DNA of 14,825 bases from an uncultured Armatimonadota bacterium (GTDB lineage: Bacteria; Armatimonadota; Fimbriimonadia; Fimbriimonadales; Fimbriimonadaceae): assembly GCA_946478935.1 (NCBI GenBank), contig CAMLEL010000017.1:1-14825 (forward strand). Direction: 5' to 3'. The notes beneath the pieces were generated by a model. It was not told the origin of the DNA, made no database searches, and worked only from the letters and a program-made list of their open reading frames with translations. Positions within the stretch are counted from its first letter, which is position 1; every line of letters begins with the position of its first letter. Below are positions 1,982 to 6,102 of this stretch, piece by piece. Position numbers and translations under genes: made by a program.

Positions 1982-2063
1982 TATTGCGTGAGTCTGTCCG
2001 AGTGGGATGGTCATTAGGCCCACGCAACGTTCTTCGCAAGTTCGCCAAGTAAACTCCGGCGGC

Positions 2064-2816
2064 ATGTCTCCCCGCCTCCAATTTGCGATCGAAACGGCGA
2101 TTCTCGCAGGGAAATCGACCCTCGCCTACTTTCAAACTGGCGCTGCGGTTGACATCAAACCCGATGAGACGCCGATTACCATTGCTGACCGGGATGCAGA
2201 GCGCCTGATGCGGCAGCGAATCGCCGAAATCTATCCGCAAGACGGCATCTTGGGCGAGGAAGAGGGTGAAACTGGGTCAGGTAGCGCGCGGTGGGTGATT
2301 GACCCGATCGATGGCACAAAGTCCTTCATCGCTGGTGTTCCGCTCTATGCGACGCTGCTGGCTTTCGAGCAGGATGGAGCACCAAAAATCGGAGTTTGCT
2401 ACTTTCCCGCCCTCGATGAATTGGTGACGGCCGAGCTTGGCAAGGGCGCCTATTGGAATGGACGACCCTGCCGGGTGAGCGAACGTCCGACGTTGGAACG
2501 AAGTCTGATTGCCACCGGAAGCTCGTCGTCGATGGCAAAGGCTGGCAGGGCAGCAGGATTCTCCAAGGTTGAGAATGCGGCCATGGCCTGCCGAACCTGG
2601 GGAGATGCCTACGGTCATGCCTTGGTGGCAACCGGCCGCGTGGATGCGATGATCGATCCGATTGTCGCGCATTGGGACATTTCCGCGATGTCGCTCATCG
2701 TCCGAGAAGCCGGTGGAAGATTTACAGACTTTAGCGGTGAGAATCCACTCTCAAAGGAAGCGCTCAGCTCAAATGGCAAGGTCCACGACGAGTTGCTTGA
2801 GGCGTTCCGGCATTGA
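2064..2816 (+). CDS. hisN: Histidinol-phosphatase, inositol monophosphatase family (HisN type)
   Basis: The product (250 residues) belongs to the inositol monophosphatase-like, Mg-dependent phosphatase family and most resembles HisN-type histidinol-phosphatases, which release phosphate from L-histidinol phosphate in histidine synthesis. Metal-site motifs are all present: GEEEG at 64-68, DPIDGTKSF at 80-88 (D80, D83) and WDISA at 204-208 (D205). The KSF after DPIDGT and the late GGRFTDFSGE block favour HisN over inositol-1-phosphatase or CysQ, but substrate cannot be proven from sequence. The frame is open from an ATG at 2007, adding 19 residues without family resemblance. I prefer ATG 2064, just before the first helix (LQFAIETAILAGK), although neither site has a clear Shine-Dalgarno. 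It is the first gene of a six-gene operon, and its TGA overlaps the ruvX TTG by four bases. Confidence 0.85.
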   Translation: MSPRLQFAIETAILAGKSTLAYFQTGAAVDIKPDETPITIADRDAERLMRQRIAEIYPQDGILGEEEGETGSGSARWVIDPIDGTKSFIAGVPLYATLLAFEQDGAPKIGVCYFPALDELVTAELGKGAYWNGRPCRVSERPTLERSLIATGSSSSMAKAGRAAGFSKVENAAMACRTWGDAYGHALVATGRVDAMIDPIVAHWDISAMSLIVREAGGRFTDFSGENPLSKEALSSNGKVHDELLEAFRH

Positions 2817-3229
2817 GAGTCCTTGGCATCGATTTCGGCTTCCGGCGAATCGGAGTTGCCGTGGCGGAGTCAGAATTTGGTGTGATCACACCGCGCCCAG
2901 CGCTGGCTGCAACTGGCACCTTGAAGCTAGATGCCGCGAAAATCTCGGCGACTTTTGCAAATGAAGGCGCGGATCGCGCGGTAATTGGTGTTCCCCTGGA
3001 AGAGGACGGTACGAAAGGCAAGATGGCCCGGATCTGCATGAAGGTGGCCGAGTTGCTACGCGAACAGGGCATCGAAGTTGCGGAGATCGATGAAAGATAC
3101 TCGTCTGTTGAAGCAGAATCGAATCTAATGCAAGAGGACTTGAAGGCAAGTCAGCGGCGGAAACTCCGGGATGGTGAAGCTGCGTCCATCATCTTGAGGC
3201 GCTATCTGGAGGAACTTGAAAAGGCTTAA
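2813..3229 (+). CDS. ruvX: RuvX/YqgF family nuclease
   Basis: This 138-residue RNase H-fold protein is of the YqgF/RuvX family, known for 16S rRNA 5'-end maturation in E. coli and Holliday-junction resolution in some bacteria. The family pattern is complete: LGIDFGFRRIGVAV at 4-17 (catalytic D7), VIGVPLEEDGT at 57-67, DERYSSVEAE at 93-102 and a final acidic site in DGEAASIIL at 120-128 (D120). The start is TTG at 2813 in the TTGA overlap with the hisN stop, giving the usual LRVLGID beginning; no ATG fits. Its 3' end overlaps mltG by 14 bp. A ruvX-mltG pair is a familiar arrangement in Bacillus-type genomes (yrrK/yrrL), which supports both calls. Confidence 0.93.
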   Translation: MRVLGIDFGFRRIGVAVAESEFGVITPRPALAATGTLKLDAAKISATFANEGADRAVIGVPLEEDGTKGKMARICMKVAELLREQGIEVAEIDERYSSVEAESNLMQEDLKASQRRKLRDGEAASIILRRYLEELEKA

Positions 3230-4223
3230 GCGGTTCATCCTCCGGGTATTCGCTCTGGTCTTGATCGTCGCTGCTGGCGGCGCGTATTGGCTGTACACCC
3301 AAATTCAGCCCCTGAACCCGAGCGACAAACTGAGGCTGGTGCGCTTTACCGAATCCACGCATATACGGTCGGCAATGGATCGGCTTGAGAAAGGCAAGGT
3401 GATTCGGAGCGCCCTCGCTGCAAAAATCTACATGCGTCTGAAGAGTTCTCCGACGACCGTGAGGTCTGGAACCTACGAACTCGGTGCCAATCTATCCCTC
3501 CAAGATGTGATCGATGCATTGCAAAAACCGATTCGACGAATGGTTCGCCTACCTGAGACCAATTGGGCAGCCCGAACGGCGAATCTTTTGGCTAAGCAAG
3601 AATTGGGCACGGCCAGTGAATACATGAGCCTTGTCCGCGAACCGGATCGCTTCCAACCGACCGTGTCGTTTCCTCTGCCAGCAGAATCGCTCGAAGGCTA
3701 CCTGTATCCCGACACATACGATCTGCCGCCACTCATGACGCCAGCTGAGGTCATCGACCGGCAGCTCGAAAACTTTGAAAAACGCATTTGGATCGGGCTG
3801 AACAAGCCAAAGGAACTCCATCGCGCTATCATCATCGCATCGATGGTCGAATTGGAAGTGGCGAGAGATGAGGAGCGCCCAATTGTTGCGGGCGTGATTG
3901 AGAATCGCCTGGCCATAGGAATGCCATTGCAGATCGATGCGGCAATCAATTACGGGATTCAAAAATGGCGACCGCTCACCTACGCGGACTACCGCAATGT
4001 GGATTCGCCGTTCAACTTGTATCGCCACAAGGGCCTGCCGCCGGGCCCGATTTGCTCTCCGACCGTCAAGTCCGTGAAAGCGGCGCTTAACCCGGCCAAG
4101 CACAAATACGTCTATTACGTGGCCCTACCGAGCGGCCGGAGCTTGTTTGCTGAAACGTATTCGGAACACCTGACCAACGTTGCCCGTCGGCGACGCGCTG
4201 TCGCGCAAGGGACCCCCGAATGA
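3216..4223 (+). CDS. mltG: Endolytic murein transglycosylase MltG (YceG-like)
   Basis: The product (335 residues) is an inner-membrane lytic transglycosylase that cleaves nascent glycan strands and so sets peptidoglycan chain length. It has a short basic N-terminus, one membrane helix (about residues 7-27, FILRVFALVLIVAAGGAYWL), and an extracytoplasmic YceG domain. Visible signatures are EGYLYPDTYDLP, ASMVELEV with the catalytic glutamate at E212 (codon 3849-3851), ENRLAIGMPLQIDAAINYG and GLPPGPICSP. The start is TTG at 3216, inside ruvX; a GGAGG at 3208-3212 lies only 3 nt upstream, so expression probably relies on coupling to ruvX. The stop overlaps the next start in ATGA. Length is typical. 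Confidence 0.94.
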   Translation: MKRLKRFILRVFALVLIVAAGGAYWLYTQIQPLNPSDKLRLVRFTESTHIRSAMDRLEKGKVIRSALAAKIYMRLKSSPTTVRSGTYELGANLSLQDVIDALQKPIRRMVRLPETNWAARTANLLAKQELGTASEYMSLVREPDRFQPTVSFPLPAESLEGYLYPDTYDLPPLMTPAEVIDRQLENFEKRIWIGLNKPKELHRAIIIASMVELEVARDEERPIVAGVIENRLAIGMPLQIDAAINYGIQKWRPLTYADYRNVDSPFNLYRHKGLPPGPICSPTVKSVKAALNPAKHKYVYYVALPSGRSLFAETYSEHLTNVARRRRAVAQGTPE

Positions 4224-5317
4224 GCGGGTTTCGCACCGGTTCGTTTGATCGCGAACGGATTTCCAGTGTTTTCCACCCGTTCCTCCCCGCCCACGCCGTT
4301 GGATCACTCCTCGAAGTGGACCTGGAGGGGCTTTGGAATCAGGGCAAGCGCTTGATCCTCCTGGATGTCGATCACACGATCGTCAAATGGCGCGAAGAAG
4401 AATTTCCCCAAGGGGTTGAGGATTGGGTGCGCCGGGCGAAGCAGCGCGGGTTTGACCTGTGCATCTTGAGCAACACTCGCAATCCCGAACGCCTCGCTCG
4501 CTTGGCTGCACGGCTGGATGTCGAGACGGTCCGGGACAAGTTCAAGCCAAGCCCGGCGATGTTTCGTCTGGCCATGATCAAATTCAAGAGAAAGCCAGAT
4601 GAGTGCCTGATGATCGGCGATCAGATCTTCACGGACATATTGGGTGCGAACCGCTGTGGGATCGATGCCATCTGGGTTCAAAAGATGGAAGGAAGGGAGT
4701 TCGCTGGAACGAAGATCAGCCGATTGGGCGAGCGACTGCTGAGGTCAACTCTCTATAAAGCTTTGGTGACCCCGGTCGATGAACAGACGAGAGACACGTT
4801 CGAAGAAGGCAAGCCGGCTGGTGATCGAAAGCTCGTTCGCCAGATCATCAAGTTTGGCATCGTCGGTGGCACTTCATTTATCATCGACTTCGGGCTCTCG
4901 TTCCTCTTCTTGCGAATTCTGTCTTGGGATGGAAAGCTGATCAGCGAATCCCTGGGCGCATGGCTCCAGACATCCTTGCCCGCGATGTTCTCTTATGCCA
5001 AAGATGCCCCGACGGCGGCAGTTCCCATTCTTGGCGGCCTTGCATCGTTCATTGCCATGTTCAATTCCTTCATCTGGAATCGCAATTGGACATTCCGTGT
5101 GAAAGGTCGGGCTGAGAGGTTGGCCCAACTTCGCCGGTTCTACGCTGTCTCGATCTTGGGAGCTCTTTGGAACACCCTGATCACCAGCGCCCTCACGAAC
5201 ATCATTCCTGGCCATCCGAATCAAAGTCTGCTGGTCGCCAAGGTGATCGCGGCCGGGATCGTTGCGATATGGAATTTCCTCGGCCAACGGTATTACGCAT
5301 TCCGAGTGAAGTCGTGA
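4220..5317 (+). CDS. YqeG-type HAD phosphatase fused to a GtrA-like membrane domain
   Basis: A 365-residue fusion of two families normally encoded separately. Residues 1 to about 170 are a YqeG/Gep4-type HAD IIIA phosphatase (the yeast relative Gep4 dephosphorylates phosphatidylglycerophosphate). All four HAD motifs are present: DVDHT (D49, D51), LSN (S84), K109 in KFKPSP, and GDQIFTDILGAN (D134, D139). After a charged linker (about 175-204) comes a GtrA/DPMS-flippase-like domain with about four membrane helices and its two signatures, FNSFIWNRNWTF and WNFLGQRYYAF. GtrA proteins are thought to flip polyprenyl-phosphate-linked sugars. ATG at 4220 has AAGGGA 7 nt upstream and overlaps the mltG stop (ATGA). 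The reading frame is continuous, so this is not two genes read together by error unless the assembly is wrong. A role in lipid-linked precursor recycling or translocation is inference. Proximity to aroE recalls Bacillus yqeG-yqeH-aroE. Confidence 0.88.
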   Translation: MSGFRTGSFDRERISSVFHPFLPAHAVGSLLEVDLEGLWNQGKRLILLDVDHTIVKWREEEFPQGVEDWVRRAKQRGFDLCILSNTRNPERLARLAARLDVETVRDKFKPSPAMFRLAMIKFKRKPDECLMIGDQIFTDILGANRCGIDAIWVQKMEGREFAGTKISRLGERLLRSTLYKALVTPVDEQTRDTFEEGKPAGDRKLVRQIIKFGIVGGTSFIIDFGLSFLFLRILSWDGKLISESLGAWLQTSLPAMFSYAKDAPTAAVPILGGLASFIAMFNSFIWNRNWTFRVKGRAERLAQLRRFYAVSILGALWNTLITSALTNIIPGHPNQSLLVAKVIAAGIVAIWNFLGQRYYAFRVKS

Positions 5318-6102
5318 GCGCATCCTACCCTTGGCGGGATGCTCCGCCCGCCGACTTTGCCGTAATCGGAGATCCGGTCAGTCACTCGAAGTCCCCGGCC
5401 ATGCACCAGGCCGTTTTTCAAGCGCTCGGATTGGACTACCGGTACAGGGCGATTCATGTCCCGACCGGAGAAGTGTCAGCAGCGCTGGATCACCTCGCCG
5501 AGCTCGGCTATTGGGGTGTCAACGTAACGGTGCCTCACAAACAGTCAGCCCTGGAATGGGCCACTGAGCCGGACTCGATTGCCCAGCGAATTGGCGCAAC
5601 GAACACCCTTGAGCTACGAACTCGTGCCGCAACGAATACGGACGCGGGTGGATTTATGGAGTCTTTGAAAGGAGCAAACATTTGCCGGGCGCTCGTTCTG
5701 GGAGCAGGTGGTTCGGCCCGAGCAGTTTGCATCGCGTTGCGAGATGCAGGGGTAGAGGTTTGCATCTGGAACCGCAGCCCTGAATCAGCCCGTGCGCTCG
5801 CCGATGAGTTTGGCTTGCTCCCCGTCGAATCGCCGCAATCGAAAGCCTTTGAACTCGTCGTGAATGCAACATCCGCATCGTTGCAGGGAAGCAATCTGCC
5901 GATTGAGTGGTCGGAGGCGGTGCCAGGGGCGATCGCCTACGACTTGGTCTACGGGGTAACTCCATTCCTGGTATCCGCCAAGCAGTTCAGATTTCAGGTG
6001 ATCGATGGATCTGAGTTGCTCGTTGCCCAGGGAGCACGCTCCTTTGAGTGGTGGACTGGTTTGAAGGCGCCTCGGGATGTCATGCGGGAGGCAATCGGGT
6101 GA
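5314..6102 (+). CDS. aroE: Shikimate dehydrogenase AroE
   Basis: The product (262 residues) reduces 3-dehydroshikimate to shikimate with NADPH in aromatic amino acid synthesis. The shikimate site is visible as GDPVSHSKSPAMH (19-31), NVTVPHK with catalytic K76, and NTD with D110. The NADP site is GAGGSARA (130-137) followed by NRS (153-155), then NATS (184-187) and the late GARSFEWWTG. I chose GTG at 5314, which overlaps the previous stop as GTGA and places the first strand (DFAVIGDP) at the usual distance. The open frame runs further upstream to 5167, but that part lies inside the GtrA domain and has no family resemblance. The segment DLVYGVTPFL replaces the usual DLVYNP-type sequence, a small variation. 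The downstream sua5 overlaps by four bases, a linkage also known from E. coli tsaC-aroE. Confidence 0.95.
   Translation: MSASYPWRDAPPADFAVIGDPVSHSKSPAMHQAVFQALGLDYRYRAIHVPTGEVSAALDHLAELGYWGVNVTVPHKQSALEWATEPDSIAQRIGATNTLELRTRAATNTDAGGFMESLKGANICRALVLGAGGSARAVCIALRDAGVEVCIWNRSPESARALADEFGLLPVESPQSKAFELVVNATSASLQGSNLPIEWSEAVPGAIAYDLVYGVTPFLVSAKQFRFQVIDGSELLVAQGARSFEWWTGLKAPRDVMREAIG
6086..6091 (+). promoter_or_regulatory. Ribosome-binding site that fixes the sua5 start
   Basis: GGGAGG ends 7 nt before GTG 6099, an ideal distance. It lies in the last codons of aroE and supports GTG 6099 over the in-frame ATG/GTG codons further upstream. It is the clearest Shine-Dalgarno among the internal starts of this operon. 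Confidence 0.65.

What the first reader, a model, noticed from the sequence alone, without database searches (positions are those of the whole stretch)
4220..5317. Phosphatase-flippase fusion: YqeG-type HAD enzyme joined to a GtrA-like membrane domain
Seen: one uninterrupted 365-residue frame with a complete HAD motif set (D49/D51, S84, K109, D134/D139) followed by a four-helix domain with both GtrA signatures. Known: YqeG/Gep4 enzymes dephosphorylate lipid phosphates such as phosphatidylglycerophosphate; GtrA-like proteins are linked to moving polyprenyl-phosphate sugars across the membrane. Inference: the fusion ties a lipid-phosphate hydrolase to a lipid-carrier flippase, perhaps recycling or releasing an undecaprenyl-linked intermediate. 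I do not know of this architecture being studied, and mltG just upstream adds a cell-envelope setting.
Basis: partly seen in the sequence, partly recalled or inferred. Interest (0 to 1): 0.72.

Follow-up and report, generated by a model that had tools for sequence, protein, structure and literature searches.

The report
Lipid-phosphate phosphatase fused to GtrA domain
In one group of environmental bacteria a small phosphatase is permanently joined to the membrane protein GtrA, and the surrounding genomes suggest, without proving it, that the pair trims and exports a lipid-carried pentose sugar for the cell envelope, as in the mycobacterial arabinose pathway.

Summary
The fusion is real. Window 4220-5317 (+) encodes one 365-aa protein: a YqeG-type HAD phosphatase (TIGR01668, above cut-off) with all catalytic residues, then a four-helix GtrA domain (PF04138). 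It is a clade trait of Fimbriimonadia-type Armatimonadota: 19 of 151 sampled phylum genomes have it as one ORF, a 20th (G109) as two genes overlapping by ATGA. Trees give one fusion clade with G109 nested inside. mltG and aroE flank unfused yqeG too, so mltG says little about function.

The PGP and undecaprenyl-recycling readings gain little support: no PGP-synthase-type enzyme (PF01066) and no PgpA was detected in the fusion genomes. Instead, 20 of 23 fusion/split genomes carry a decaprenyl-phosphate phosphoribosyltransferase (DPPRS) clustered with DprE2-like and DprE1-like genes. The fusion holds the genome's only GtrA above cut-off. Elsewhere in the phylum a separate GtrA sits beside DPPRS (9 of 65 GtrA genomes, one clade), and in one genome a YqeG does.

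Best reading, inferred: a DPPR 5'-phosphatase joined to the exporter of the lipid-linked pentose. Against it: YqeG and DPPRS do not co-vary over the phylum, PAP2 phosphatases are present, and the fusion is not in the DPA cluster. Nothing was tested biochemically.

The parts
4220..5317 (+). YqeG-GtrA fusion gene, 365 aa
4220..4759 (+). HAD phosphatase part, residues 1-180 (YqeG, TIGR01668 on 21-168)
4364..4378 (+). HAD motif I, residues 49-53 (D49, D51, T53 invariant in 44 of 44)
4469..4471 (+). HAD motif II, S84
4544..4546 (+). HAD motif III, K109
4619..4636 (+). HAD motif IV, D134 to D139
4760..4828 (+). variable linker, residues 181-203; low confidence at 186-194
4829..5314 (+). GtrA domain, residues 204-365, four transmembrane helices
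4919..5020 (+). insertion between TM1 and TM2, residues 234-267, predicted periplasmic, with a helix at 241-252
5078..5095 (+). first GtrA signature, N287-R288-x-x-T-F292
5273..5302 (+). second GtrA signature, N352-F353 to F361
3216..4223 (+). mltG (YceG, PF02618); its stop overlaps the fusion's ATG (ATGA, 4220-4223)
5314..6102 (+). aroE, probable GTG start at 5314 overlapping the fusion's stop (GTGA); the listed ORF begins at 5167

Best explanation
A bifunctional inner-membrane protein of a polyprenyl-phosphate-pentose (DPA-type) pathway. Shown by sequence: a complete HAD phosphatase active site on the same chain as the genome's only GtrA domain above cut-off, in genomes most of which encode a DPPR-synthase relative clustered with DprE2-like and DprE1-like genes. 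Inferred: DPPR synthase makes polyprenyl-phosphoryl-5-phosphoribose on the inner leaflet; the YqeG domain, held in the cytoplasm at the membrane, removes the 5'-phosphate; the pentose lipid, before or after epimerisation to arabinose, is bound by the GtrA domain and moved to the periplasmic face (or handed to a glycosyltransferase there) for envelope glycan synthesis. The fusion would supply the two roles, phosphatase and exporter, that the three-gene cluster lacks.
For: DPPR synthase relative (NF008977, 218.5-234.1 bits in four fusion genomes, cut-off 234); at E<=1e-30 in 139 of 151 phylum genomes, control 1 of 14, and in 18 of 19 fusion genomes, 6 of these 18 over the cut-off. DPPRS, DprE2-like and DprE1-like genes clustered in 20 of 23 fusion/split genomes against 3 of 42 other loci that I chose; DprE1 is the best NCBIfam model of the oxidase (236.4 and 270.6 bits, under the cut-off of 500). 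One GtrA above cut-off per fusion genome. In 9 of 65 unfused genomes with GtrA above cut-off it lies directly after DPPRS, in the cluster looked at beside a sugar transferase, exosortase and EpsI genes. In G031 one of two YqeG genes lies 45 bp upstream of DPPRS. A HAD domain performs this dephosphorylation in the ORF15 system (PMC11127046, passages) and the GtrA protein Rv3789 is needed for arabinosylation (PMC7389260, passages). Positive loops and four helices put both ends in the cytoplasm.
Against: YqeG and DPPRS do not co-vary: of 151 genomes 131 have both, 11 YqeG only, 8 DPPRS only, 1 neither (my tally), and YqeG occurs in bacteria without DPPRS such as B. subtilis. PAP2 phosphatases, the mycobacterial type proposed for this step, are in 30 of 30 genomes tested. 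The fusion gene is not in the DPA cluster. The nine GtrA-DPPRS pairs are one clade, not that of the fused GtrA. The DprE2-like SDR fits a general SDR model better than DprE2, and 12 of 18 fusion-genome DPPRS are under the curated cut-off. G103 has DPPRS without the other two beside it, and G001, the nearest held relative, gave no DPPRS; the window's own genome is not held.
Confidence: 0.4

Rival explanations
1. Two tasks on one chain: YqeG keeps its ordinary housekeeping role, whatever that is in this phylum, and GtrA exports lipid-linked sugars; they were joined through operon neighbourhood, and the join serves only co-expression or membrane anchoring.
For: YqeG stayed in its old ruvX-mltG-yqeG-aroE place and is near-universal with or without GtrA and DPPRS. 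The linker is long and variable (33% mean identity), and the domain orientation is not fixed in the model (pTM 0.52). G109 does without the covalent link.
Against: The fusion is kept in 22 of the 23 genomes of the clade examined with both active regions conserved. In G109 the two genes stay overlapped, which suggests that joint production matters.
Confidence: 0.27
2. Membrane-tethered phosphatidylglycerophosphate phosphatase (Gep4/PgpP type): the HAD domain makes phosphatidylglycerol and the GtrA domain is only an anchor or lipid-presenting platform.
For: PF09419 'Mitochondrial PGP phosphatase' scores above cut-off. PgpA is absent from 151 of 151 genomes, so another PGP phosphatase would be needed if PG is made. 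CdsA is in 29 of 30 genomes. YqeG-type enzymes as PGP phosphatases are recalled, from no call. The GtrA-like domain of archaeal DPMS carries a catalytic domain without being called a flippase (recalled; match to 5mlz).
Against: No PF01066 enzyme in 20 of 20 fusion/split genomes of the draw, nor in 23 of 23 with the A1 profile beyond one partial hit at E 0.089; over the phylum PF01066 is in 23 of 151 while YqeG is above cut-off in 142. It gives GtrA no sugar-lipid role.
Confidence: 0.2
3. Undecaprenyl (pyro)phosphate phosphatase that recycles the carrier and flips it (near the first reader's idea).
For: GtrA family proteins are linked to polyprenyl-phosphate sugars (PMC7389260, passages).
Against: HAD-IIIA proteins are not a known Und-PP phosphatase family (recalled). 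PAP2 proteins, which include that activity (recalled), are in 30 of 30 genomes tested. The predicted topology puts the HAD site in the cytoplasm, while recycled Und-PP is released outside (recalled).
Confidence: 0.05

Closest known systems
YqeG family HAD-IIIA phosphatase (TIGR01668; B. subtilis YqeG)
   Same: Family score above cut-off, catalytic residues, and a place ahead of an aro gene (B. subtilis yqeG-yqeH-aroD, PMC5080769, passages).
   Different: C-terminal four-helix GtrA domain; unfused YqeG in the phylum is about 165-290 aa in most of the loci fetched. B. subtilis YqeG showed only weak 5'-nucleotidase activity and its function was left open there.
GtrA family (PF04138): Shigella GtrA, GtcA, M. 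tuberculosis Rv3789
   Same: Family score above cut-off and both signature stretches.
   Different: Those are small separate proteins (PMC7389260, passages); here the domain is fused and has a roughly 34-residue insertion between TM1 and TM2.
ORF15 of Citrobacter youngae (HAD PRP domain fused to a UbiA polyprenyl phosphoribosyltransferase)
   Same: A HAD phosphatase fused to a membrane domain in lipid-linked pentofuranose synthesis (PMC11127046, passages).
   Different: There the HAD is fused to the synthase and export is by a MATE protein; here it is fused to GtrA and the synthase relative is a separate gene.
Mycobacterial DPA pathway (Rv3806c, Rv3807c, DprE1, DprE2, Rv3789)
   Same: The fusion genomes have relatives of DPPR synthase, DprE1 and, more weakly, DprE2.
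   Different: The proposed phosphatase there is a separate PAP2-type protein and Rv3789 is separate, with flippase and anchor roles both argued (PMC7389260, PMC5964476, PMC3229680, passages).
Archaeal dolichyl-phosphate mannose synthase with GtrA-like domain (PDB 5mlz)
   Same: Cytoplasmic catalytic domain followed by a GtrA-like domain; profile match E 4.7e-4 over 268-323, Foldseek E 3.1e-5.
   Different: The catalytic domain is a glycosyltransferase, not a phosphatase.
Bacteroides inositol-lipid cluster BT_1523-BT_1525
   Same: A GtrA protein (BT_1524) encoded beside a lipid head-group phosphatase (BT_1525) (PMC9246714, PMC8791184, passages).
   Different: Separate genes, a PgpA-type phosphatase, and deletion of BT_1524 left the inositol lipids unchanged by TLC.

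Membership tests
YqeG family phosphatase (TIGR01668) | Score above the curated cut-off | tested here: met
   105 bits against 89.1
YqeG family phosphatase (TIGR01668) | Complete HAD catalytic residues | tested here: met
   D49, D51, S84, K109, D134, D139 in 44 of 44
GtrA family (PF04138) | Score above the gathering cut-off and four helices | tested here: met
   65.8 bits against 26.1; helices in the model
GtrA family (PF04138) | Translocation of polyprenyl-phosphate sugars | not testable with these tools
   needs biochemistry; unproven for the family too according to PMC7389260
PGP phosphatase (Gep4/PgpP) | A PGP-making enzyme detectable in the same genomes | tested here: not met
   PF01066 in 0 of 20; A1 profile in 0 of 23 at E<=0.001, one partial hit at 0.089. 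A divergent enzyme may have been missed
PGP phosphatase (Gep4/PgpP) | Hydrolysis of phosphatidylglycerophosphate | not testable with these tools
   needs an assay
DPA pathway component | DPPR synthase relative in the same genomes | tested here: met
   18 of 19 fusion genomes at E<=1e-30, 6 of them over the curated cut-off
DPA pathway component | DprE1-like and DprE2-like genes clustered with DPPRS | tested here: met
   20 of 23; profiles built partly from this clade; NCBIfam scores are under the DprE1 and DprE2 cut-offs
DPA pathway component | The fusion gene itself lies in the DPA cluster | tested here: not met
   it lies in the ruvX-mltG-aroE locus; no YqeG or GtrA match in the DPA loci of the clade
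DPA pathway component | Presence of YqeG follows presence of DPPRS | tested here: not met
   131 both, 11 YqeG only, 8 DPPRS only, 1 neither of 151 (tally)
Dolichyl-phosphate mannose synthase (5mlz type) | Glycosyltransferase catalytic domain | tested here: not met
   the N-terminal part is HAD

The most novel reading that the evidence does not exclude
YqeG-type HAD enzymes can serve as the 5'-phosphatase of polyprenyl-phosphoryl-phosphoribose, and in Fimbriimonadia this enzyme is fused to the GtrA exporter, so that dephosphorylation and export of the lipid-linked pentose are coupled in one protein: a natural single-chain answer to two unsettled steps of the arabinose-donor pathway.
Probability: 0.33. 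Interest if true: 0.75.

Novelty: new variant of a known kind. Interest (0 to 1): 0.52.

Why it matters
How the mycobacterial arabinose donor is exported is unsettled (flippase or anchor: PMC7389260 and PMC5964476, passages), and its proposed phosphatase Rv3807c was the one gene of the tested set not found essential (PMC5964476). A natural protein that may join both steps, in environmental bacteria, would make both testable. It would also give the widespread YqeG family a second candidate substrate. The DPPR-synthase family at E<=1e-30 in 139 of 151 genomes suggests an arabinose- or ribose-donor pathway across the phylum.

Tried and rejected
Assembly artefact or frameshift: rejected, the fusion recurs in 19 of 151 genomes and in L001-L004, one of which (L001) lies in one of the 19. 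mltG as a functional clue: rejected. PgpA as a competing PGP phosphatase: 0 of 151, control 4 of 14. TIGR00560 PgsA: 19 of 151 at E<=0.001, 2 over cut-off, none of the fusion genomes. PLD-type synthases as a PG source: PF13091 in 28 of 30 genomes, many as double hits in frames of about 700 aa, which I read from recall as polyphosphate kinase, and many in frames near 1000 aa; I did not check each. Other phosphatases beside DPPRS: a crude motif scan of neighbours flagged one distant ORF (L213) and missed the YqeG of L240, so it is not evidence. VIA-align listed HAD chains only and left the GtrA part barely tested. Papers: YqeG with 'phosphatidylglycerophosphate phosphatase' 0; YqeG with GtrA 0; PgpP search 22, the 20 listed not on point by title; Fimbriimonas polar lipids 0; Armatimonadetes lipid terms 23, 10 listed, the F. 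ginsengisoli genome paper having no phospholipid statement in the passages searched; an Armatimonad/DprE1/YqeG search gave 193, of which the 10 listed hold no 'armatimonad' (183 not seen). Whether the split in G109 is a real fission or a base error could not be decided.

Full report
Observation. Window 4220-5317 (+) is one open frame of 365 residues. Its first half scores as YqeG-family HAD-IIIA phosphatase (TIGR01668, 105 bits, cut-off 89.1) and its second as GtrA (PF04138, 65.8 bits, cut-off 26.1). In an alignment of 44 fusion proteins that I chose, D49, D51, T53, S84, N85, K109, G133, D134 and D139 never vary, nor do GtrA residues G216, N287, R288, F292, N352 and F361. Mean pairwise identity is 58% in the HAD part, 43% in the GtrA part and 33% in the linker. 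AlphaFold2 gives mean pLDDT 85.3 but pTM 0.52, so I trust the domains but not their mutual orientation. The TM2-TM3 loop has 7 K/R against 1 D/E and the C-tail 3 against 0, while the two outer loops have 2 against 3 and none; by the positive-inside rule both ends and the HAD domain lie in the cytoplasm (inference).

Distribution. All 120 listed homologs carry PF00702 and PF04138; those with an organism name are Armatimonadetes/Fimbriimonadaceae/Fimbriimonas, including F. ginsengisoli (360 further matches not listed). Of 151 genomes drawn from the phylum, 142 have a YqeG over cut-off and 85 a GtrA over cut-off. In 19 the two lie in one ORF; in G109 they are two genes overlapping by ATGA. Each of these 20 genomes has one GtrA and one YqeG over cut-off; G132 has a second GtrA hit below it. 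With G002-G004, found by another search, 23 genomes of the clade were studied. A tree of 73 GtrA domains puts the 23 fused rows (window included) and the G109 row on one branch (100/99; few columns). A tree of joined RuvX-MltG-YqeG-AroE (44 rows, 20 unfused) gives the same clade (100/99) with G109 inside a 16-row subclade (98/97). One fusion followed by one fission, or one base error, is the simplest history.

Context. In most fusion loci the order is impA-ruvX-mltG-fusion-aroE-tsaC. In 20 unfused loci mltG is found in 15 and aroE in 15 beside yqeG. In B. subtilis yqeG also heads an operon with aroD (PMC5080769, passages). So YqeG kept its old place and gained GtrA there, and mltG is no special clue.

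Test of the PGP reading. PgpA: 0 of 151, control 4 of 14. PF01066, the family of PgsA: 23 of 151, control 14 of 14, none of the 20 fusion/split genomes. A profile of ten phylum members matched 4 of 7 unfused genomes (three of them donors of the profile) and none of 23 fusion/split genomes at E<=1 but one partial hit at 0.089. CdsA is present in 29 of 30. By these models the fusion genomes have no enzyme that makes PGP; a divergent one may have been missed.

Test of the lipid-pentose reading. One UbiA protein of the fusion genomes is a decaprenyl-phosphate phosphoribosyltransferase relative (NF008977, 218.5-234.1 bits in four, cut-off 234). This family occurs at E<=1e-30 in 139 of 151 genomes (107 over cut-off; control 1 of 14, C. 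glutamicum, under cut-off) and in 18 of the 19 fusion genomes, 6 of these over cut-off. So its presence alone does not mark the fusion clade. What does is its company: an SDR with some DprE2 similarity (NF053786, 88.4 and 75.7 bits, cut-off 250, a general SDR model scoring higher) and an FAD oxidase whose best NCBIfam model is DprE1 (236.4 and 270.6 bits, cut-off 500). All three are clustered in 20 of 23 fusion/split genomes; in G016 the contig ends after DprE2, in G103 DPPRS stands alone, in G001 nothing was found. Among 42 other DPPRS loci, picked by me and not at random, 3 have the trio (G061, G011, G130). My profiles were built partly from the fusion clade, which favours the contrast. In 9 of 65 unfused genomes with GtrA over cut-off, GtrA follows DPPRS within a few bases; in the one annotated (L241) the cluster also holds a Wzz/ATPase protein, a sugar transferase, an exosortase and EpsI. 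In G031 one of two YqeG genes lies 45 bp upstream of DPPRS. So GtrA is linked to DPPRS, YqeG is once linked to DPPRS, and YqeG is fused to GtrA.

Mechanism (inferred). DPPRS loads phosphoribose on the polyprenyl phosphate; the tethered HAD site removes the 5'-phosphate; DprE1/E2 may turn ribose to arabinose; GtrA binds the lipid-linked pentose and moves or presents it to the periplasmic side. Precedents: HAD removal of this phosphate in ORF15 (PMC11127046, passages); the GtrA protein Rv3789 in arabinosylation, with flippase and anchor roles both argued (PMC7389260; PMC5964476; passages). A catalytic domain joined to a GtrA-like domain is known in archaeal DPMS, which the GtrA part matches (5mlz).

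What speaks against it. YqeG and DPPRS do not co-vary: 131 genomes have both, 11 YqeG only, 8 DPPRS only, 1 neither (tally; absences may be gaps in draft genomes). PAP2 phosphatases are in 30 of 30 genomes tested. The fusion gene is not in the DPA cluster. The nine GtrA-DPPRS pairs are one clade, separate from the fused GtrA. The nearest held relative, G001, gave no DPPRS, and the window's own genome is not held. In Bacteroides a GtrA gene beside a lipid phosphatase could be deleted without changing inositol lipids (PMC9246714, passages), so neighbourhood can mislead.

Verdict. A real, conserved, single-origin fusion. I found no paper that names YqeG and GtrA together; databases label it as a YqeG phosphatase. 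The function is proposed, not shown. What works like a DPPR phosphatase-exporter is my best guess at 0.4; membership in the YqeG and GtrA sequence families is firm, membership among PGP phosphatases is not supported.

Noticed in passing
phylum sample G001, G005-G154: 128 of 151 genomes show no CDP-alcohol phosphatidyltransferase (PF01066) although CdsA is present in 29 of 30 tested; how these bacteria use CDP-diacylglycerol is unexplained.
   Followed up: partly
L250:2075-3760, L251:2151-3857, L252:2325-3932 (minus strand): In G057, G033 and G072 YqeG is the C-terminal part of 535-568 aa ORFs whose first roughly 370 residues match no Pfam family at E<=0.001.
   Followed up: no
L253:4684-7422 (minus strand): In G010 the DPPR-synthase-like UbiA domain is the C-terminal part of a 912-aa ORF without other Pfam matches.
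   Followed up: no
L241:4413-10308: A DPPRS-GtrA pair lies in a cluster with a Wzz/ATPase protein, sugar transferase, exosortase and EpsI genes, linking lipid-pentose supply with an exosortase system.
   Followed up: partly
window 2007-2816: An inositol-monophosphatase-family gene before ruvX is found in most fusion loci; my query found none in the 20 unfused loci of about 6 kb, which may cut it off.
   Followed up: no
L081:2656-4349 (G109): yqeG and gtrA are separate, overlapping by ATGA, inside the fusion clade: fission or base error.
   Followed up: partly
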